From the NCBI GenBank assembly GCA_903820285.1, contig CAIJGS010000188.1:1-47239 (forward strand): a stretch of 47,239 bases of DNA. The letters are read 5' to 3'. Below are positions 6,077 through 15,246 of the stretch, piece by piece. How positions within the stretch are numbered: position 1 is the first letter of the stretch; the number at the start of each line of letters is the position of its first letter. The notes under the pieces were generated by a model that made no database searches, had not been told where the DNA came from, and was given only the letters and a program-made list of their open reading frames with translations. Both the position numbers and the translations under genes were made by a program. Source of the DNA: an uncultured Verrucomicrobia subdivision 3 bacterium (GTDB lineage: Bacteria; Verrucomicrobiota; Verrucomicrobiia; Limisphaerales; UBA11358).

Positions 6077-6847
6077 TCAGCCGCCAAAAAACTTTAGGCG
6101 GGCCGCCGCCGGGAGGGATTCCAAGTCCAGCAGAGTCAGAAAATCAATTGTTTTAAAGTGCCGGTCCAGCGCCGGCGGACCGCAGATTCTGGCCCCCACG
6201 GTCAAATACGCGCGCAAGAGCTTCGGGACTGACACCGGTTCGGGAGACAACTGATCCAGCGGACAGTCAAATTCAGGCAACGGCCGGGTGCGTAAAGCAA
6301 TTTCTACGAGATGCTGCCGGCCCAGCGTGGCATAGGCGGATGCGCCCACGGCCGGATCCTGGCTGGTCAGGGAACTGCAGCCCACCAGATAGCGTCCGCC
6401 GTGCCGGCGGGCATAATCGGCGATGCCTTTCCAGAGGAGGCCCAGCACTACCAGATTGCGGTGCTGCGCGTGGACACAGGCGCGGCCCAGTTCGATGATT
6501 TCCCGCCGGTATTGGTCGAACCCGGCAAACTCAAATTCCTGCGCGCAATAATAACCGAGATTTTGGGCGGCGGTGGCACCGGTCTGCAAACGATAGGTAC
6601 CCACAATTTGTCCGGATGGAACATGCTCGACCAGCAGGTGGTCGCACACCTCATCGAACGGATCGGCATCCAAGCCGCAGTGATGGGAAGCCTCCAAGCC
6701 TTCTTGTAATTCCAGGTTGAAGACCTGATAACGCAAGGCCTGGGCGGCTTGGACCTCTTGAGCCGTCTCGGCGAGCCGAAGGTGGTAGGCGGAGGCCGAA
6801 CGGACCAGCAGGCGGACGGATCCCAAGGTTATAGGGAGCAGATTCAT
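6077..6847 (-). CDS. GNAT-type acyltransferase, OlsB / ornithine-acyltransferase-like
   Basis: YHLRLAETAQEVQAAQALRYQVFNLELQEG…DHLLVEHVPSGQIVGTYRL; start placed at internal Met (6847) because the ORF extension overlaps the anti-sigma ORF. Confidence 0.82.
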   Translation of the reverse strand: MNLLPITLGSVRLLVRSASAYHLRLAETAQEVQAAQALRYQVFNLELQEGLEASHHCGLDADPFDEVCDHLLVEHVPSGQIVGTYRLQTGATAAQNLGYYCAQEFEFAGFDQYRREIIELGRACVHAQHRNLVVLGLLWKGIADYARRHGGRYLVGCSSLTSQDPAVGASAYATLGRQHLVEIALRTRPLPEFDCPLDQLSPEPVSVPKLLRAYLTVGARICGPPALDRHFKTIDFLTLLDLESLPAAARLKFFGG

Positions 6848-6918: not shown

Positions 6919-7209
6919 TTATTGTTTTTGTTGAAGCCGCTGCCGGATGCGTTCGCGCGCCGCCGCCGAGAGTTTGGGAGCCGGGGCGGATGCCGGGGCC
7001 TCGCCTTGCCACTGCGCGACGGACCGTAAATACCGGAGTTGCCGGCCATATCGGCGGCACCACCGGCAGATCAGCACATGCAACCACAAGCCCAACCGCC
7101 GGGACCATGTCAGCGGATGGTCCAGCATTTCAGACTGGGTGCGCGCCGCCGCCCGACAGTTCGGGGAAAGGTCGGCGCAGACCGTCTTTATATTTTTCCA
7201 ATAGCTCAT
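6919..7209 (-). CDS. small zf-HC2/ZAS-type anti-sigma factor (96 aa)
   Basis: H-x3-C-x2-C motif (HVLICRWC) in …SEMLDHPLTWSRRLGLWLHVLICRWCRRY; directly downstream of an ECF sigma gene. Confidence 0.8.
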   Translation of the reverse strand: MSYWKNIKTVCADLSPNCRAAARTQSEMLDHPLTWSRRLGLWLHVLICRWCRRYGRQLRYLRSVAQWQGEAPASAPAPKLSAAARERIRQRLQQKQ

Positions 7210-7242: not shown

Positions 7243-7269
7243 GGTCGGCGATCTCGGCGTAACCTTACA
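7243..7269 (-). promoter_or_regulatory. putative ECF promoter TGTAAGG-N14-CCGACC
   Basis: Plus strand ggtcgg cgatctcggcgtaa ccttaca; lies between sigma stop (7286) and anti-sigma start (7209). Confidence 0.75.
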
Positions 7270-7285
7270 GTGAAACGGAGAATTT

Positions 7286-7918
7286 TCATGCCTGTTTTTG
7301 GAACCAGTTGGTTTCGAGGCAGCGGCGCAGGGCCATGCGGGCGCGATGCAGCATCACCCAGAGGTTGCTCTCCGAAATGGCCAGCAGCGCGCAGATTTCT
7401 TTGCTTTCAACGCCATCTACTTCGCGTAGTGTGAAGACAACGGCGACTTTTTTTGGCAATTTGCCGGCGCAATCGCGATAGGTCTGCCAGAACAGCTCAT
7501 TATCCAGACTCTCCCCCTGGTTATGCCATTCTTGGGGACCCAGCTCATGAATCCAGCCGCCCTGTCCCAAGCCATCCGCCACAAAACGATCACTTTCCTC
7601 GTCGCGATAGAATTCGAGATCGGTGAAGGATGTTTCGCGGCCGGCCTTGCGAAAATAATCGAAAATTTTGTTCTTCAGGATGCCCACCAGCCAGCTTTTC
7701 TCAGCGCTGCGGCCCTGGAATTTCTGCCCGCCCTTTAAGGCGGCCAGGAAAGTCTCTTGCACGGCATCCTCCGCTTTGGCCGGGTCGCGCAGGCGAATCA
7801 TGGCGTATTTGAAAAGATAGTCGCCATGCTCGTCCACCCACCGTTCCGGGTCGGAAAGCCCCGGGTGGGTGGCGTCCGGTTTGTCCGGTTCGCGCGGGGA
7901 TGGCAGCTCGCCTTGCAT
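7286..7918 (-). CDS. ECF-type RNA polymerase sigma-70 factor
   Basis: Region 2 (YLFKYAMIRLRDPAKAEDAVQETFLAAL…WLVGILKNKIFDYFRK) and region 4 (LPKKVAVVFTLREVDGVESKEICALLAISESNLWVMLHRARMALRRCLE). Confidence 0.95.
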   Translation of the reverse strand: MQGELPSPREPDKPDATHPGLSDPERWVDEHGDYLFKYAMIRLRDPAKAEDAVQETFLAALKGGQKFQGRSAEKSWLVGILKNKIFDYFRKAGRETSFTDLEFYRDEESDRFVADGLGQGGWIHELGPQEWHNQGESLDNELFWQTYRDCAGKLPKKVAVVFTLREVDGVESKEICALLAISESNLWVMLHRARMALRRCLETNWFQKQA

Positions 7919-7950
7919 ATTTGTGCATCATATTCCCCAAATCCGCCGGG

Positions 7951-8004
7951 GTGGCAAGCAAACGTGGCAATAATTTGTGGCATTCCCTGTAAGGAATTGC
8001 CACC
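7951..8004 (+). promoter_or_regulatory. candidate operator: three GTGGCA half-sites at 13-bp spacing plus one inverted TTGCCAC
   Basis: GTGGCAA 7951, GTGGCAA 7964, GTGGCAT 7977, TTGCCACC 7997-8004; overlaps the ECF promoter. Confidence 0.4.
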
Positions 8005-8014
8005 GCAGGCGACC
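7988..8014 (+). promoter_or_regulatory. putative ECF promoter TGTAAGG-N14-GCGACC
   Basis: tgtaagg aattgccaccgcag gcgacc, 46 nt before ATG 8061. Confidence 0.75.
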
Positions 8015-8060
8015 AATGCCTTAGCATGCGGTCAGTTGATCGCCCTGGAACATAAATACC

Positions 8061-8357
8061 ATGACACTTCCATCCATGAAGGCGCCGACGGAAATCCTGT
8101 TGTGCCTGGCCGGTTTATATCTGGGCCTCGGCCTGGCGTTCGCCATCCCCTTCGTGCTGGTGGGAGTGCAACGGATTGATCCCCACGCCCGGCACGCCTC
8201 GTGGGGATTCCGGTTGCTGATCCTGCCTGGAACCATGGCGCTGTGGCCGCTGTTAATGTGGCGCTGGGTCAAAGGCATGTCCACGCCCCCCGAGGAAAGC
8301 AACGCACACCGTCCACCGGCCCGGCCCGGAGCCGCGAAAACATCTTTGCACCCATGA
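8061..8357 (+). CDS. small membrane protein (98 aa)
   Basis: Two hydrophobic segments; ATGA overlap with the next gene at 8354. Confidence 0.7.
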   Translation: MTLPSMKAPTEILLCLAGLYLGLGLAFAIPFVLVGVQRIDPHARHASWGFRLLILPGTMALWPLLMWRWVKGMSTPPEESNAHRPPARPGAAKTSLHP

Positions 8358-8845
8358 TCCAGCCACTGCGCCAACGTCATCGGCAGGTTTTTATGCTGCT
8401 CGGCATTACGCTGCCGGCGGTATTGATCGTCGGATTCGCCACTCACCCGACGGTGCCGGTGGCCACCCCCTTGCCGCCCGCTCTGGCGGAGGCCGCCCCG
8501 GCCTTGGCCACCGTGGTGTGGCAGCGGGACGGACTGTTCGCCAAAGCACCTGTGCAAGTCCGCTTGCTGCGTAACCCGGGTGAACCCGGGGGATTCGCGC
8601 TGAATCTGACGGGTACCAGGGATTTCCTAAAACCAGACTTGTTGGTGTACTGGGTTTCCGGCCAACCGGAAATCACCGATACGCTGCCCGGCGACGCGCG
8701 GTTGCTGGGAGCTTTCAGCACTGGTGCCCTACCGTTGCCAGACGAGGCGGTGCGCGGCACCGGCGTGCTGGTGCTTTATAGTCTGGCGGATAATGAGATG
8801 GTGGCTGTTTCCCGGCCGGTTCAACTCAACGATTCCACCCGCTAA
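8354..8845 (+). CDS. membrane-anchored / periplasmic hypothetical protein
   Basis: Start at internal Met MIQPLRQRHRQVFMLLGITLPAVLIVGF; overlaps the upstream stop (ATGA). Confidence 0.72.
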   Translation: MIQPLRQRHRQVFMLLGITLPAVLIVGFATHPTVPVATPLPPALAEAAPALATVVWQRDGLFAKAPVQVRLLRNPGEPGGFALNLTGTRDFLKPDLLVYWVSGQPEITDTLPGDARLLGAFSTGALPLPDEAVRGTGVLVLYSLADNEMVAVSRPVQLNDSTR

Positions 8846-8850
8846 ACTGC

Positions 8851-9891
8851 ATGAGCATCCAATTCCAGGCAGTACAATGGAACCGGCAAAAACGCATCTA
8901 TGATAGCGTGCTCGTAGGCAGCGTGGCCACGTACCTGCTGGTTTTCGGGCTGGTGACTGAATGGCTCTTTCCGTACGTCACCGAAGAAATCTTGCTGATG
9001 CGGGCCTTTGGCACGTGCGCGTTTCTGCTGTTGCACGTCATTCTTTGTCTGGGGCCGCTGTGCCGGTTGAATCCCCAATTTCTGCCGCTCCTTTATAACC
9101 GCCGCCATGCCGGCGTTACCCTGTTCCTGCTGGCACTGATTCATGCCGCGCTCGTGGTAACCACTTATCATGCCGGGGGGAATGCAAATCCGATTCTGAG
9201 CATATTTACCGCCGGCAAGTTTGGCGGCACGGCGGGGTCGGTGCCGTTTCAGACATTTGGTTTCATGGCGTTGGTCATTTTATTTCTGATGGCCGCCACG
9301 AGCCATGATTTCTGGCTGACGAATTTGACGGCGCCGGTGTGGAAGGCCCTGCACATGCTCGTCTATGCCGCCTACGCGCTGCTAATCCTGCATGTGGCTT
9401 TTGGTGTGCTCCAGGCGGAAACCAGCCTGGTTTACGCGGCCGCTGTGTCGGTTGGGTTGGTGACGGTGCTGGGTTTGCATCTCGTCGCCGCCCGCCGGGA
9501 GCATAAGTTGGATGCGGCGGCTATACCGGCGAACGAAGCCGACGGTTACGTGGACGCCGGCCCGGTGGCGGATATTCCTGAAAACCGGGCGCGGATCGTC
9601 TCCCTTGCCGGGGAACGGGTGGCGATTTTCAAGTATGATGGAAAAATCTCCGCCATCTCAAATGTGTGCCAGCATCAAAATGGGCCGCTCGGCGAGGGGA
9701 AAATCGTCGACGGCTGTATCACCTGCCCCTGGCACGGCTATCAGTACCGGCCGGAAACGGGTGCCTCGCCGCCGCCATTTGTTGAACGGGTGCCAACCTT
9801 TAATGTGCGCATCAAAAATGGCCGGGTTTGGGTGCATTCCCGGCCCAACCCGCCGGGAACGAAAACGGAACCCGCCCTCATTGAACCATGA
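8851..9891 (+). CDS. ferric-reductase-like transmembrane domain fused to Rieske [2Fe-2S] domain
   Basis: Multiple TM helices with conserved His; Rieske motifs CQHQNGPL and CPWHGYQY. Confidence 0.9.
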   Translation: MSIQFQAVQWNRQKRIYDSVLVGSVATYLLVFGLVTEWLFPYVTEEILLMRAFGTCAFLLLHVILCLGPLCRLNPQFLPLLYNRRHAGVTLFLLALIHAALVVTTYHAGGNANPILSIFTAGKFGGTAGSVPFQTFGFMALVILFLMAATSHDFWLTNLTAPVWKALHMLVYAAYALLILHVAFGVLQAETSLVYAAAVSVGLVTVLGLHLVAARREHKLDAAAIPANEADGYVDAGPVADIPENRARIVSLAGERVAIFKYDGKISAISNVCQHQNGPLGEGKIVDGCITCPWHGYQYRPETGASPPPFVERVPTFNVRIKNGRVWVHSRPNPPGTKTEPALIEP

Positions 9892-10658
9892 AGGATGACT
9901 TCTACATCGGCTGGCAACCCAAGGCCCAACCCGGCATCGGCCGGATAATACGGCGCGCGGTGGCGATTCTGCTGCTGGCGGCGATGCTGGTGCCGGCGGT
10001 GCTGGCGGTTTCGCAACGGCTCATCGGCGCCGGGGTTTTTGAATGGGGCACGTTGAAAACGTTCACCGGCATTTTGCAGGCCAAGCCCTATCCCTGCCTG
10101 CTGGTGCCCCGGCCGGGGCAGTCCGGTCCCCTCCCGGCCTATTCGGCATATTACCTGGTCGCCCCCTGGAAGTTCGGTTTACGGCCGGATCAAGTTGCCG
10201 CGTTTGACGGCCGGCCGGTTACCCTCAAAGGCACGCTGATCTTTCGCGAAAATCAGACCATGATTGAAGCGTTGCCGGACTCCATCCACGCCGGTAAATC
10301 GGCGACCAATCGCATGGCAGAGCTACCGGCGGCCATCTCGCTGGGGCGGCAAACCTTGACCGGCGAGATTGTGGACAGCAAATGTTTTCTGGGTGTCATG
10401 AATCCGGGGCAACTCGCACCGCATCGCGCCTGCGCCATCCGTTGCATCAGTGGCGGTATTCCGCCGGTGCTGCTGGTGCGGCCAGCCCAGGGAACACCGT
10501 TGTATTTCTTGCTGGTTTCAGCGGAGGGCAAACCGGTGAATTCCCAAGTGCTGGATCTCGTGGCCGAACCGGTGCAAGTGACCGGTGAAGTGGAGCGGCA
10601 AGGTGAGTTGCTGATCCTGCACGCCGACCCGGCAACCTATCGCCGGGTGCCATTATGA
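9888..10658 (+). CDS. membrane-anchored hypothetical protein of the Rieske operon
   Basis: ATGA overlap with the Rieske gene; N-terminal TM; GEIVDSKCFLGVMNPGQLAPHRACAIRCISGGIPPVLLV. Confidence 0.8.
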   Translation: MKDDFYIGWQPKAQPGIGRIIRRAVAILLLAAMLVPAVLAVSQRLIGAGVFEWGTLKTFTGILQAKPYPCLLVPRPGQSGPLPAYSAYYLVAPWKFGLRPDQVAAFDGRPVTLKGTLIFRENQTMIEALPDSIHAGKSATNRMAELPAAISLGRQTLTGEIVDSKCFLGVMNPGQLAPHRACAIRCISGGIPPVLLVRPAQGTPLYFLLVSAEGKPVNSQVLDLVAEPVQVTGEVERQGELLILHADPATYRRVPL

Positions 10659-10674
10659 TAATCTGAAATTCCGC

Positions 10675-11598
10675 CTACGATTTGCGGCAGCAGGTACCGT
10701 CCGCCTTATGAACGTGTCCCGGGGCGGCGGGTGAAACCGGTGATGGCGTTTTGAGCGCGTGCAGGGATACAAAGATCACGCCCACCGGAAGGAATAGTGG
10801 TGTCAATACGACCGTCAGCACGCCAAATGCGATCCGCCCCAAGATGCCGGTCCCGGTTTCAACGTTCTGAAACGGCCCGGCCCGGCGCGTCAAAGGGGCA
10901 AACCATAGCTTGGTGTATAGCCACCAGGACTGGCCAAACCGCTGGCCAAAACCATCCCGTTCTGGCTGCTGAGGTTTGGTGGCCTCGCCGCCGGGCAGAT
11001 ACACCAGCGTGTTGACACGGCCAATGTCGGCGTAGGTCTCGGCACTTTCGACAAGTGAGATGGCTTCGGAAAATATCAAGTCGGCCCGCGCCGCCTCGGT
11101 GAGCAGCAGATATTGGCCGGCCTTGACGGAATTCTTCAGCAGGCGATGGACAATGATGACATCCACTCCGGCAAGTTCCACAAAGTTTAGCACCCGGTGA
11201 AACAGAGCCTCGCCGCTGTGCACAATCACCTTGAGTTGAAGGGTCTCGATGTGGGTGCAGGCCTGGCAGTTGCAGGTGGTGGAACGGCCCAACTCGCCCA
11301 ACTTCTGACGAAACTGGTAAAAGAAGGCGAGCAACTGTTCCCCAATGAGGCCGCGGCTTTCCGCCCAGTCTCGCGGGCCATTTTGCTTCCGGCAATACAG
11401 AAAAATAGCGTCCCCCTCCAGCTTGGCCACTTCCAGTGGCAGCTCAATCTGCCGGACAATGGCGTGGATCAATTCCGTGATAATCGTCTGGCTGTGGGCG
11501 AGGGTTTTGACGTTGGCTGTCATGTAGCGCGTATAGCCGCTGATGTCAGCAATAATCAGCAACACGGGTTCGGGGGCGTCGGCGGGACGAGGGTTCAT
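10675..11598 (-). CDS. DUF2652 (adenylate-cyclase-like) protein
   Basis: LLIIADISGYTRYMTANVKTLAHSQTIITELIHAIVRQIELPLEVAKLEGDAIFLY. Confidence 0.85.
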   Translation of the reverse strand: MNPRPADAPEPVLLIIADISGYTRYMTANVKTLAHSQTIITELIHAIVRQIELPLEVAKLEGDAIFLYCRKQNGPRDWAESRGLIGEQLLAFFYQFRQKLGELGRSTTCNCQACTHIETLQLKVIVHSGEALFHRVLNFVELAGVDVIIVHRLLKNSVKAGQYLLLTEAARADLIFSEAISLVESAETYADIGRVNTLVYLPGGEATKPQQPERDGFGQRFGQSWWLYTKLWFAPLTRRAGPFQNVETGTGILGRIAFGVLTVVLTPLFLPVGVIFVSLHALKTPSPVSPAAPGHVHKADGTCCRKS

Positions 11599-11626
11599 GG
11601 TTTAATAAATTTGAAAGCCAACTGTA

Positions 11627-11653
11627 TGTCGAAGCGGATGGGCATTCCTTACA
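11627..11653 (-). promoter_or_regulatory. putative ECF promoter TGTAAGG-N14-TCGACA
   Basis: Plus strand tgtcga agcggatgggcatt ccttaca; 28 nt upstream of the DUF2652 start (11598). Confidence 0.68.
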
Positions 11654-11674
11654 ACGAGAAATTGCCGGTTCGGT

Positions 11675-11701
11675 TGTAAGTTTTTGCGCCGGCCTGCGAC
11701 C
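11675..11701 (+). promoter_or_regulatory. putative ECF promoter TGTAAGT-N14-GCGACC
   Basis: tgtaagt ttttgcgccggcct gcgacc; 7 nt before ATG 11709; divergent from the site at 11627-11653. Confidence 0.72.
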
Positions 11702-11708
11702 CACCGTT

Positions 11709-12500
11709 ATGAATACAAATTTTACCACCCGCTGGCACCAAATCGTCTCTTCCCTGGTCTTGACCGGAGCGCTGGTGGCAAACGCCCAAGCGACGGCCCG
11801 GCATTTTCAGAGCGGTATCAAGCCGGTGCCACTGCTGGAACTATACACATCGGAAGGCTGCAGCAGTTGTCCGTCGGCGGAGGAATGGCTGGGGCGACTG
11901 AAAGATTCGCCGGGCCTGTGGCGGGATTTTTCGCCGCTGGCGCTGCACGTCCATTATTGGGATTCGCCGGTCTGGCGGGATCATTGGTCGGCGCCGGAAT
12001 ACACGGAGCGCCAGCGCAGTTACGCGGAGGCGTGGCACGCCGACAACATCTACACGCCCTGTTTCGTGTTGCAGGGCCAGGAATGGCGCGGCTGGTTTAT
12101 GCACCACGGCGTGCCGGCATCGGCCGGGGAAGACATCGGGGTGCTGGCGGTGAACTCCACCAACGCCCTGCTCTGGAAGGCGACCTTTGTGCCGGCCATG
12201 CCGGCCGACCGGCGGTATGAAATCCACGCCGCGCTGCTGGCCGGTGGATTGGACACCGATGTATTGGGCGGAGAAAATGACGGCCGCCGCTTGCATCATG
12301 AATTTGTGGTGCTGGACCTGATCCAGATCGGGCTGGGCGATTACCATGGCGTGGCGCAGGGCAAATTTATTTTGGATCCCCGGCGATTTCCGCCTGAAAA
12401 ATCGCTGGCCCTGACGGTTTGGGTGACCGTGGCAGGGGAAATGACGCCGCTCCAATCGACCGGCGGCTGGCTCACACCACCGGTCCCGCCGGTGAAATAA
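11709..12500 (+). CDS. DUF1223 secreted thioredoxin-fold-like protein
   Basis: Signal peptide then VPLLELYTSEGCSSCPSAEEWLGRL and VHYWDSPVWRDHWSAPEYTERQRSYA. Confidence 0.9.
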   Translation: MNTNFTTRWHQIVSSLVLTGALVANAQATARHFQSGIKPVPLLELYTSEGCSSCPSAEEWLGRLKDSPGLWRDFSPLALHVHYWDSPVWRDHWSAPEYTERQRSYAEAWHADNIYTPCFVLQGQEWRGWFMHHGVPASAGEDIGVLAVNSTNALLWKATFVPAMPADRRYEIHAALLAGGLDTDVLGGENDGRRLHHEFVVLDLIQIGLGDYHGVAQGKFILDPRRFPPEKSLALTVWVTVAGEMTPLQSTGGWLTPPVPPVK

Positions 12501-12507
12501 CAAACGC

Positions 12508-12534
12508 TGTAAGGTTCCCGCAACCCAACCGACT
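12508..12534 (+). promoter_or_regulatory. putative ECF promoter TGTAAGG-N14-CCGACT
   Basis: tgtaagg ttcccgcaacccaa ccgact; 8 nt before ATG 12543. Confidence 0.7.
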
Positions 12535-12542
12535 CAATCATC

Positions 12543-12995
12543 ATGAAGAAATTAATTCTTTCCCTCGTGCTGGCCGGACTGGCGCTGCCCGCGTTCGCGC
12601 AAAGCAAAACCCTGCTCAACCTCGACAAGTCAGGCGTGGCCATCCAAGGCTATGATCCCGTGGCCTTTTTCACCGACCACCAGCCGGTGAAGGGCAAGCC
12701 GGATTTCGTGGCGAAGCGGGATGGCGCGATTTATTACTTTGCGTCCAAGGAACATCGTTCACTATTTCTCAAGACGCCCGCGAACTATGAGCCTGCGTAT
12801 GGCGGCTATTGTGCGTACGGTGTTTCGCGCAATCGGCTGGTGGAGATAGACGTGGATGCCTTTCAGGTGGTGGATGGCCGGCTGTTGCTGCAATACAGCA
12901 AGGGCGTGCGTGCGGATTTCAATGAAGATATGAAAGGCAATCTCGCCAAGGCGGAAACCAACTGGCCGGGGCTAGTCATGAAAAAGGGTAAATAG
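12543..12995 (+). CDS. secreted YHS-domain protein
   Basis: Signal peptide; GVAIQGYDPVAFFTDHQPVKGKPDFVAKRDGAIYYFASKEHRSLFLKTPANYEPAYGGYCAYGV. Confidence 0.92.
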   Translation: MKKLILSLVLAGLALPAFAQSKTLLNLDKSGVAIQGYDPVAFFTDHQPVKGKPDFVAKRDGAIYYFASKEHRSLFLKTPANYEPAYGGYCAYGVSRNRLVEIDVDAFQVVDGRLLLQYSKGVRADFNEDMKGNLAKAETNWPGLVMKKGK

Positions 12996-12997
12996 TA

Positions 12998-13024
12998 TGT
13001 AAGGACTTCATCGTTCTCGCGACC
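12998..13024 (+). promoter_or_regulatory. putative ECF promoter TGTAAGG-N14-GCGACC
   Basis: tgtaagg acttcatcgttctc gcgacc; 15 nt before ATG 13040. Confidence 0.74.
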
Positions 13025-13039
13025 CATGAACATCGAAAT

Positions 13040-13576
13040 ATGAGTTCCCCCATCCACAATGAACTGCTGGTCTCGGTCTTGGAAACGCTCACCCAAGGCG
13101 AGCTGCTGCTGGCGGAAATCAGCGACACCGATTACACGCGCAAACTGCCGGTGGCGTTCAATGCCTCCATTGGAGGCCATTACCGTCACTGTCTGGACCA
13201 TTTCCGCAGCCTGCTGGACGCGGCGGGCGCCGGGAATCTGAATTATGATCACCGGGAACGCGGCACCCTGGTGGAGAGCGATCGGTTTGCGGCGCTCAAC
13301 GCGACGCGCGAATTGCGCGCGGGCTATGAACAACTCAACCCCGCCATCCTGATGCGTTTCCTCGATGTCACCTGCAAAACCAGCTATGCCAGCTGCGGCT
13401 CGCAAGTCTCGCCCTCAACGGTGGGGCGCGAAATCATGTATTCCGTGGCCCATGCTGTGCATCATTATGCGTTGATCGGAGTCATGGCCGGGATCATGGA
13501 GTTGAAATTGCCGGCTGGATTTGGCGTGGCCCCGTCCACCTTGAAACATCAGCAGACCGCCGGCCAGACCGCCTGA
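13040..13576 (+). CDS. DinB-like protein
   Basis: Four-helix DinB pattern: IGGHYRHCLDHFRSLLDA … REIMYSVAHAVHHYALIGVMA (conserved His residues). Confidence 0.75.
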   Translation: MSSPIHNELLVSVLETLTQGELLLAEISDTDYTRKLPVAFNASIGGHYRHCLDHFRSLLDAAGAGNLNYDHRERGTLVESDRFAALNATRELRAGYEQLNPAILMRFLDVTCKTSYASCGSQVSPSTVGREIMYSVAHAVHHYALIGVMAGIMELKLPAGFGVAPSTLKHQQTAGQTA

Positions 13577-13587
13577 TTTTTGGTGTT

Positions 13588-15246
13588 TTGTTTATGACCC
13601 ACCTCATCTCATGGCCTATTCCGGCGATGGCCGAATGGATGCCGGTTTGGAAAATCACTGGTATTTTCCTGGCCACGTTTGTGCTGGAAGATGTGGCCAC
13701 GGTGGGCGCGGGGCTGTTGCTCACGGCGGGAGCCATTTCGTGGCCGACGGCGTTTGCGACCTGTTTTTTTGGCATATGGCTGGGCGATGCCGGTCTGTAT
13801 GGCCTGGCCCGCATGGGCGGGCGCACTTGGTTTGAACGCTCATCCTTCCGGAAACATGCCGCCCGGGTGGCCCGGTGTGAACAGTGGTTTGCGGAACGCG
13901 GGACGCTCATTTTGATTTTCAGCCGGTGCTTTCCCGGCACGCGGCTGCCCACCTATCTGGCGGCCGGATTTTTGCGGCTGGCATTGCCGCGCTTTCTGCT
14001 GGTAACGGGGCTGGCGGCGGCGGTATGGACCGGGTTGATTCTTGGATTGGCCCAGATTTTTGGCGCCCGGCTGGTTCCCTGGCTGGCCGCCGGCCAGCAC
14101 GGCGGATGGTGCCTGCTCGGCTTGAGCGGGGCGCTGTTGGCTTTGTTCCAGTTGAGCCGCAGGGTGTTTGGCGGGGTTGATTTTCAGCGGTTGGGCGCCC
14201 GGTTGGAACGGTGGCGGCATTGGGAATTCTGGCCGGCGTGGCTATTTTATCCGCCCGTGGCGCTGTATTGCCTTTGGCTGGCGATCAAGCACCGGAGTGT
14301 ATCCGTGCCCATGGCGGCGAACCCGGGAATTTTTTCCGGCGGCATGGTGGGTGAATCCAAAATCACCATGCTGGAGGAATTGTACGCAACCAGTCCGGGG
14401 TTTACGGCGGAAGCCGTCTTGATTCCAGCCGGGGAGCTGGCCACCCGCCGGCAAGCACTGGCAACGCTGCTGTCCCGGCCGGGATTTACGTATCCGTTTA
14501 TTCTTAAGCCGGATGTGGGCCAGCGCGGGGCCGGGGTAAAACTGATCCGCACGCCGGCGCAAGCCGATGACTATTTGCGCCAGACAAACACCCCGCTGGT
14601 GATGCAACGCTATGTGCCGGGACCTTGTGAAGCCGGGATTTTTTATTACCGTTTTCCAGGCGAAACGCGCGGCACGATCTTCTCCATCACGGAAAAAATC
14701 TTCCCGGTGGTTACGGGTGACGGCCAAAGCACCATCGGAGAACTGATTGTCCGCGATCCGCGCGCCCGGCTGATTGCCAGCGTCTATCTCAAACGGATGG
14801 CGGCGCGGCAAGATGAGGTGCTGCCCATGGGCGAGACATGCAAACTGGTGGAGGCGGGCAATCACGCCCAAGGCTGCATCTTTCGTGACGGCGGGCGGTT
14901 GCACACGCCGGAGTTGGCGGCGAGAATTGATGAGATTTCACAGAAGCTGGGCGGGTTTTTTATCGGGCGGTATGACCTCCGGTTTGCCACGGAGGCGGAT
15001 TTGCGCGCCGGGAAAAACTTTCAGATCATTGAATTGAACGGGGCGGCGGCGGAAGCGGCGAGCATTTATGACTCCCGTAATTCTCTCCGTTCGGCGTACC
15101 GGACGCTGTTCCAGCAATGGAGCCTGGTCTTTGCCATTGGCGCGGAAAACCGGCGGCGGGGTCATTCGCCGCTGCCCTTATTGGCGGTTTGGAAAGCCTG
15201 GCGCGCCTATAATCAAACCGCCGCGTCGTATCCGGACGCGGATTGA
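13588..15246 (+). CDS. DedA-family membrane domain fused to C-terminal ATP-grasp domain
   Basis: N-terminal DedA (FLATFVLEDVATVGAGLLL…FSRCFPGTRLPTYLAAGFL…); C-terminal FILKPDVGQRGAGVKLI…MQRYVPGPCEAGIFYYR…IELNGAAAEAASIYD. Confidence 0.85.
   Translation: MFMTHLISWPIPAMAEWMPVWKITGIFLATFVLEDVATVGAGLLLTAGAISWPTAFATCFFGIWLGDAGLYGLARMGGRTWFERSSFRKHAARVARCEQWFAERGTLILIFSRCFPGTRLPTYLAAGFLRLALPRFLLVTGLAAAVWTGLILGLAQIFGARLVPWLAAGQHGGWCLLGLSGALLALFQLSRRVFGGVDFQRLGARLERWRHWEFWPAWLFYPPVALYCLWLAIKHRSVSVPMAANPGIFSGGMVGESKITMLEELYATSPGFTAEAVLIPAGELATRRQALATLLSRPGFTYPFILKPDVGQRGAGVKLIRTPAQADDYLRQTNTPLVMQRYVPGPCEAGIFYYRFPGETRGTIFSITEKIFPVVTGDGQSTIGELIVRDPRARLIASVYLKRMAARQDEVLPMGETCKLVEAGNHAQGCIFRDGGRLHTPELAARIDEISQKLGGFFIGRYDLRFATEADLRAGKNFQIIELNGAAAEAASIYDSRNSLRSAYRTLFQQWSLVFAIGAENRRRGHSPLPLLAVWKAWRAYNQTAASYPDAD

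What the first reader, a model, noticed from the sequence alone, without database searches (positions are those of the whole stretch)
7243..13024. Six copies of TGTAAG(G/T)-N14-NCGAC(C/T/A): a locally encoded ECF sigma regulon
Sites: 7243-7269(-), 7988-8014(+), 11627-11653(-), 11675-11701(+), 12508-12534(+), 12998-13024(+). In every copy the two blocks are exactly 14 nt apart, and every copy is intergenic and points at the adjacent start codon. Written as TGTAAG-N16-CGAC this has the normal geometry of ECF sigma promoters. It sits next to an ECF sigma gene (7286-7918), so that sigma is the obvious reader. I saw no other copy elsewhere in the window.
Basis: partly seen in the sequence, partly recalled or inferred. 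Interest (0 to 1): 0.85.

Follow-up and report, generated by a model that had tools for sequence, protein, structure and literature searches.

The report
Local ECF sigma/anti-sigma stress regulon
Six identical-spacing promoters around one alternative sigma gene form a small, self-contained stress switch in a Verrucomicrobia-group bacterium: the sigma factor is predicted to turn on redox and envelope genes together with its own zinc-binding inhibitor, much as a known oxidative-stress system of Neisseria and Haemophilus does.

Summary
All six TGTAAG-N16-CGAC sites are at the stated places; 0.06 are expected by chance in the window, and the 5.2-Mb genome holds only two more, both inside genes. 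The same motif recurs around orthologues of the sigma gene: 65 distinct sites, almost only with a 16-nt spacer, with TGTAAGGWWT and CGACNAA as the extended boxes. Genomes with the sigma gene have many sites; genomes without it have few. The 7244-7269(-) site drives a 96-aa gene (6919-7209) that overlaps a longer ORF and encodes a ZAS anti-sigma factor (C-x25-H-x3-C-x2-C, invariant in 33 sequences; NCBIfam antisigmaE above cut-off). No site precedes sigma itself, so the predicted loop is negative feedback through the inhibitor. Predicted start sites fall on or next to the ATG of the DUF1223 and YHS genes, so these mRNAs are probably leaderless. Relatives put MsrAB, peroxiredoxin-like and DoxX genes behind the same promoter. 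That matches neisserial sigma-E/MseR and Haemophilus RpoE2/HrsE in kind, with a different -10 box and wiring. The likely role is a thiol/oxidative envelope-stress response; the inducer is untested.

The parts
7286..7918 (-). ECF sigma factor (210 aa, regions 2 and 4; TIGR02943 family), predicted reader of the six promoters
   Evidence: Pfam Sigma70_r2 and Sigma70_r4_2; TIGR02943 189 bits, cut-off 162; only member over the cut-off in the genome
6919..7209 (-). ZAS-type zinc anti-sigma factor (96 aa, no membrane segment expected), predicted inhibitor of the sigma
   Evidence: C18, H44, C48, C51 invariant in 33 aligned sequences; NCBIfam NF052368 antisigmaE 58 bits, cut-off 50; only one in the genome
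7244..7269 (-). ECF promoter of the anti-sigma gene, TGTAAGGTTACGCCGAGATCGCCGAC
   Evidence: predicted start site 7235
7988..8013 (+). ECF promoter of the membrane/Rieske operon, divergent from sigma
11628..11653 (-). ECF promoter of the DUF2652 gene
   Evidence: half of a divergent pair, an arrangement also seen in L023, L029 and L036
11675..11700 (+). ECF promoter of the DUF1223 gene; predicted start site is the A of the ATG (leaderless)
12508..12533 (+). ECF promoter of the YHS gene; ATG 9 nt after CGAC (leaderless or nearly)
12998..13023 (+). ECF promoter of the DinB-like gene and probably the two genes after it
6077..6846 (-). ornithine-lipid acyltransferase-like (OlsB/GNAT) gene, probably transcribed with the anti-sigma gene; start codon uncertain
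   Evidence: Pfam Acetyltransf_5; NCBIfam L-ornithine N-acyltransferase 151 bits, below its cut-off; follows the anti-sigma gene in L028, with its own site, and in L030
8061..8357 (+). small 98-aa protein, hydrophobic, conserved in 7 loci
   Evidence: no family match
8354..8845 (+). uncharacterised 163-aa protein, no family match
8851..9891 (+). ferric-reductase-like membrane domain (MsrQ-like) fused to a Rieske [2Fe-2S] domain
9888..10658 (+). uncharacterised 256-aa protein with a Cys/His-containing stretch
   Evidence: no family match; homologues next to the Rieske gene in several loci
10675..11598 (-). DUF2652 protein
11709..12500 (+). DUF1223 protein
12543..12995 (+). YHS-domain protein
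   Evidence: NCBIfam NF041384, 135 bits, cut-off 70
13040..13576 (+). DinB-like protein (weak match)
   Evidence: below the Pfam cut-off
13588..15246 (+). VTT/DedA membrane protein with a C-terminal ATP-grasp-like part (weak match); likely operon member
   Evidence: same order in L023 and L029
15250..16008 (+). TANGO2-family protein; likely operon member

Best explanation
This is a small ECF sigma regulon encoded in one locus. Shown from sequence: one ECF sigma gene, one ZAS anti-sigma gene, and six promoter-like sites of one class (TGTAAGGWWT-N12-CGACNNA) in front of the anti-sigma gene and five effector units. Inferred: in unstressed cells the zinc-loaded anti-sigma holds the sigma inactive. 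Oxidation of its invariant cysteines (by HOCl, peroxide or an electrophile) releases the sigma, which turns on redox and envelope genes and more of the anti-sigma. Since sigma has no site of its own, the loop is negative feedback only. The mRNAs for DUF1223 and YHS probably start at their ATG.
For: Six sites against 0.06 expected; 6 of the 8 strict sites in the genome. Across related loci there are 81 sites (65 distinct) at spacer 16, at most 3 at any other spacer from 12 to 20, and 1 for the reversed motif at spacer 16. Spacer bases vary while both boxes are fixed, and A is the third base after CGAC in 62 of 65. Sites track the sigma gene in the genus and the class. In L025 the anti-sigma gene lies 7 kb from sigma and still carries the site. 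ZAS residues are invariant in 33 proteins; antisigmaE match above cut-off. YR step at offset 8 after CGAC in 20 of 37 leadered sites, 3 to 14 at the other offsets tested; ATG at offset 8-10 in 20 of 60 sites against a mean of 2.6 per bin, maximum 6. Relatives place MsrAB, peroxiredoxin-like, DoxX and FMN-reductase genes behind the site. The neisserial sigma-E promoter is GTMAGBWTT / CGTCTAAH with a 12-13 nt spacer, giving the same -35 box and geometry (PMC2893595).
Against: No transcription data of any kind. The genome's own msrA gene shows no site. Some relatives with a diverged sigma (L034, L035, L045, L047) lack strict sites, as do six of the 13 sigma-positive genomes in the class sample. 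The anti-sigma model is only moderately confident (pLDDT 76) and its fold search gave no match. A profile of the family matched no solved structure. Most effector proteins have no known function, so the inducer is inferred from distant relatives.
Confidence: 0.9

Rival explanations
1. The sites are promoters, but of another ECF sigma factor of the genome.
For: The genome holds 13 other places that match an ECF sigma model weakly.
Against: Sites follow this sigma orthologue across genomes and cluster beside it; none of the other places lies on this contig.
Confidence: 0.06
2. The two boxes are an operator for a DNA-binding repressor or activator, not a promoter.
For: No start site has been mapped, and a fixed two-box site could bind a regulator.
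Against: The site is not a palindrome, points at the start codon, has a 16-nt spacer, an ECF-like CGAC box and a YR step at the expected start site; no other regulator gene recurs at the sigma loci.
Confidence: 0.03
3. The repeat is chance or a dispersed DNA repeat.
For: None found for the window; two sites in distant loci (L043, L044) do lie in coding DNA and may be coding coincidences.
Against: 0.06 expected; 6 of 8 genome copies are here; spacer sequences differ between sites while the boxes are fixed.
Confidence: 0.01

Closest known systems
Neisseria meningitidis/gonorrhoeae sigma-E (Ecf) with anti-sigma MseR (PMC2893595, PMC3240639)
   Same: ZAS anti-sigma next to the sigma; -35 box GTAAGGWTT; same distance to the -10 box; small regulon; MsrAB and DoxX targets (also found in relatives of this locus)
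   Different: -10 box is CGTCTAA there, CGACNNA here; sigma is autoregulated there, no site before sigma here; the anti-sigma has its own site here; DUF1223, YHS, Rieske and OlsB-like targets here
Haemophilus influenzae RpoE2/HrsE (PMC7907618)
   Same: ZAS anti-sigma (67 aa); local target genes; MsrAB and DoxX; induced by HOCl and H2O2
   Different: sigma and anti-sigma are co-transcribed there; no promoter consensus was found in the passages read; other targets
ECF16 sigma factors such as Bradyrhizobium EcfF/OsrA (PMC3420878)
   Same: Promoter tGTAACc-N16-CGAA is near in sequence and equal in spacing; methionine sulfoxide reductase targets
   Different: Anti-sigma is a DUF1109-type membrane protein there; the sixth -35 base and the last -10 base differ

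Membership tests
ECF (group 4) sigma factor | sigma-70 regions 2 and 4 only | tested here: met
   Pfam, both above cut-off, no other domain found
TIGR02943 sigma family | score over the curated cut-off | tested here: met
   189.1 bits, cut-off 162.2
ZAS anti-sigma factor | C/H-x23-26-H-x3-C-x2-C motif | tested here: met
   C18-x25-H44-x3-C48-x2-C51; four residues invariant in 33 sequences
ZAS anti-sigma factor | match to the anti-sigma family model | tested here: met
   NF052368, 58 bits, cut-off 50; all 33 sequences match at E <= 0.1; Pfam zf-HC2 matches 21 of 33 but not the window protein
ZAS anti-sigma factor | anti-sigma fold seen in solved structures | tested here: inconclusive
   model pLDDT 76, no fold match with E below 3
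ZAS anti-sigma factor | binds sigma and releases it on oxidation | not testable with these tools
   needs protein work
Neisserial sigma-E/MseR regulon | -35 GTAAGGWTT and equal spacing | tested here: met
Neisserial sigma-E/MseR regulon | -10 CGTCTAA | tested here: not met
   CGACNNA at all six sites
Neisserial sigma-E/MseR regulon | sigma gene under its own promoter | tested here: not met
   best match upstream of sigma is 7 of 10 bases; a site does precede sigma in L024 and L031
Neisserial sigma-E/MseR regulon | msrAB in the regulon | tested here: not met
   no site at the genome's msrA; met in relative L029
ECF16 (NrsF/OsrA type) | DUF1109 membrane anti-sigma | tested here: not met
   none among the neighbours; ZAS protein instead

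The most novel reading that the evidence does not exclude
A redox ECF switch in which sigma is outside its own regulon and only the inhibitor is induced, while key effectors are made from leaderless mRNAs. In related lineages the sigma gene carries two different ZAS inhibitors, one abutting sigma and one under the sigma-dependent promoter, so basal and feedback inhibition would be split between two proteins.
Probability: 0.45. Interest if true: 0.65.

Novelty: new variant of a known kind. Interest (0 to 1): 0.55.

Why it matters
It gives a complete, testable sigma/anti-sigma/promoter set for a phylum whose ECF factors are, to my knowledge, little studied, and assigns a shared stress context to several families of unknown function (DUF1223, YHS, DUF2652, a Rieske/ferric-reductase fusion). 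The promoter is so specific that it could serve as an orthogonal switch. The two-inhibitor arrangement and leaderless effector mRNAs raise a question of circuit design that can be tested directly.

Tried and rejected
Structure search of the anti-sigma model gave nothing, nor did a profile search of solved structures. No paper held names DUF1223 or TIGR02943 together with ECF factors, and none of the ECF papers listed contains the string TGTAAGGA. The main ECF classification paper is not in the library, so the ECF group number was not assigned. Sites inside the sigma genes of L043 and L044 were set aside because they encode conserved residues. Sigma-70 promoter-like sites and terminators in the region are no more frequent than in shuffles. 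The chance and other-sigma readings were rejected on the counts above.

Full report
Observation. The six sites are real and exactly placed. They number 6 against 0.06 expected, and the whole genome has only two more strict copies, both inside genes. When the A that follows CGAC at the third position is added, only these six match without mismatch, and 13 of 14 one-mismatch sites lie in ORFs. The finding's own refutation test, scatter through coding DNA, is therefore not met.

The reader of the sites. The gene at 7286-7918(-) is an ECF sigma with regions 2 and 4, in NCBIfam TIGR02943 above its cut-off, and the only such gene in the genome. Orthologues occur in 14 of 49 genomes of the genus set, the window's own included, and in 13 of 116 genomes of the class sample. 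Strict sites are frequent where the sigma is present and rare where it is not. Named relatives come mostly from Verrucomicrobia subdivision 3/Limisphaerales, and more distantly from Acidobacteria, Zixibacteria and Proteobacteria.

The motif. In the related loci there are 81 sites with a 16-nt spacer (65 distinct), at most 3 with any other spacer from 12 to 20, and 1 of the reversed motif at spacer 16 (some loci are the same genome fetched twice, hence the 65). The boxes extend to TGTAAGGWWT and CGAC-N-A-A, and the bases between are nearly free. A pyrimidine-purine step is enriched at the ninth base after CGAC (20 of 37 sites whose ATG is not close by), the expected start site. ATG codons pile up at offset 8-10 (20 of 60 sites; mean of other bins 2.6, maximum 6). 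Many mRNAs of the regulon are thus likely leaderless; in the window this applies to DUF1223 (predicted start on the A of the ATG) and YHS (one base before it).

The missed inhibitor. The site at 7244-7269(-) does not serve the 343-aa ORF first listed there but a 96-aa ORF at 6919-7209(-), 34 nt downstream. It has the ZAS motif of zinc anti-sigma factors; its C18, H44, C48 and C51 are invariant in 33 sequences. It exceeds the cut-off of NCBIfam antisigmaE, and it is the only one in the genome. In several relatives (L028, L029, L032, L034) a second ZAS gene abuts or overlaps the end of sigma and the gene of the window's type follows; in L028, L029 and L032 that following gene has its own site. 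In L036-L038 and L040, ZAS genes flank the sigma on both sides. No site precedes sigma in the window (best 7 of 10 bases), while L024 and L031 do have one.

The targets. Behind the six sites are the anti-sigma gene with an OlsB-like acyltransferase; an operon of a small hydrophobic protein, a 163-aa protein, a Rieske/ferric-reductase fusion and a 256-aa protein; DUF2652; DUF1223; a YHS protein; and a DinB-like gene with a DedA/ATP-grasp and a TANGO2-type gene. Relatives place MsrAB, peroxiredoxin-like, DoxX and FMN-reductase genes behind the same site. This points to oxidative or thiol stress at the envelope; that step is inference.

Comparison. Neisserial sigma-E has -35 GTMAGBWTT and -10 CGTCTAAH with a 12-13 nt spacer, a ZAS anti-sigma (MseR) and MsrAB among its targets (PMC2893595). 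Haemophilus RpoE2/HrsE is HOCl- and H2O2-responsive with MsrAB and DoxX (PMC7907618). ECF16 promoters read tGTAACc-N16-CGAA, and that group's anti-sigma is a DUF1109 membrane protein (PMC3420878). The locus works like the first two. It is not filed as a member of the neisserial system, since that system's -10 box, sigma autoregulation and msrAB target were tested and not met in this genome.

Limits. All evidence is from sequence. The predicted anti-sigma structure found no match, the inducer is unknown, and the ECF group was not assigned.

Noticed in passing
L042:5507-6138: In an Acidobacteriota locus the same promoter motif lies upstream of a second ECF sigma gene, a possible sigma cascade.
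   Followed up: no
L036, L037, L038, L040 around the sigma gene: The sigma gene is flanked on both sides by ZAS anti-sigma genes; in L036, L037 and L040 a promoter site precedes the upstream one.
   Followed up: partly
L031:7908-8639: The sigma orthologue is split into two ORFs, a frameshift in the assembly or a broken gene.
   Followed up: no
window 9888-10658: A 256-aa protein without family match has a striking Cys/His stretch GEIVDSKCFLGVMNPGQLAPHRACAIRCISGG.
   Followed up: no
L030: The record is titled Akkermansia muciniphila, but its sigma is 75% identical to the Limisphaerales one; the MAG may be mislabelled or mixed.
   Followed up: no
L043:2338-2363, L044:8490-8515: The promoter motif occurs inside the sigma gene just before the anti-sigma gene, where it also encodes the conserved ICK(D/E)L...TN residues.
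   Followed up: partly
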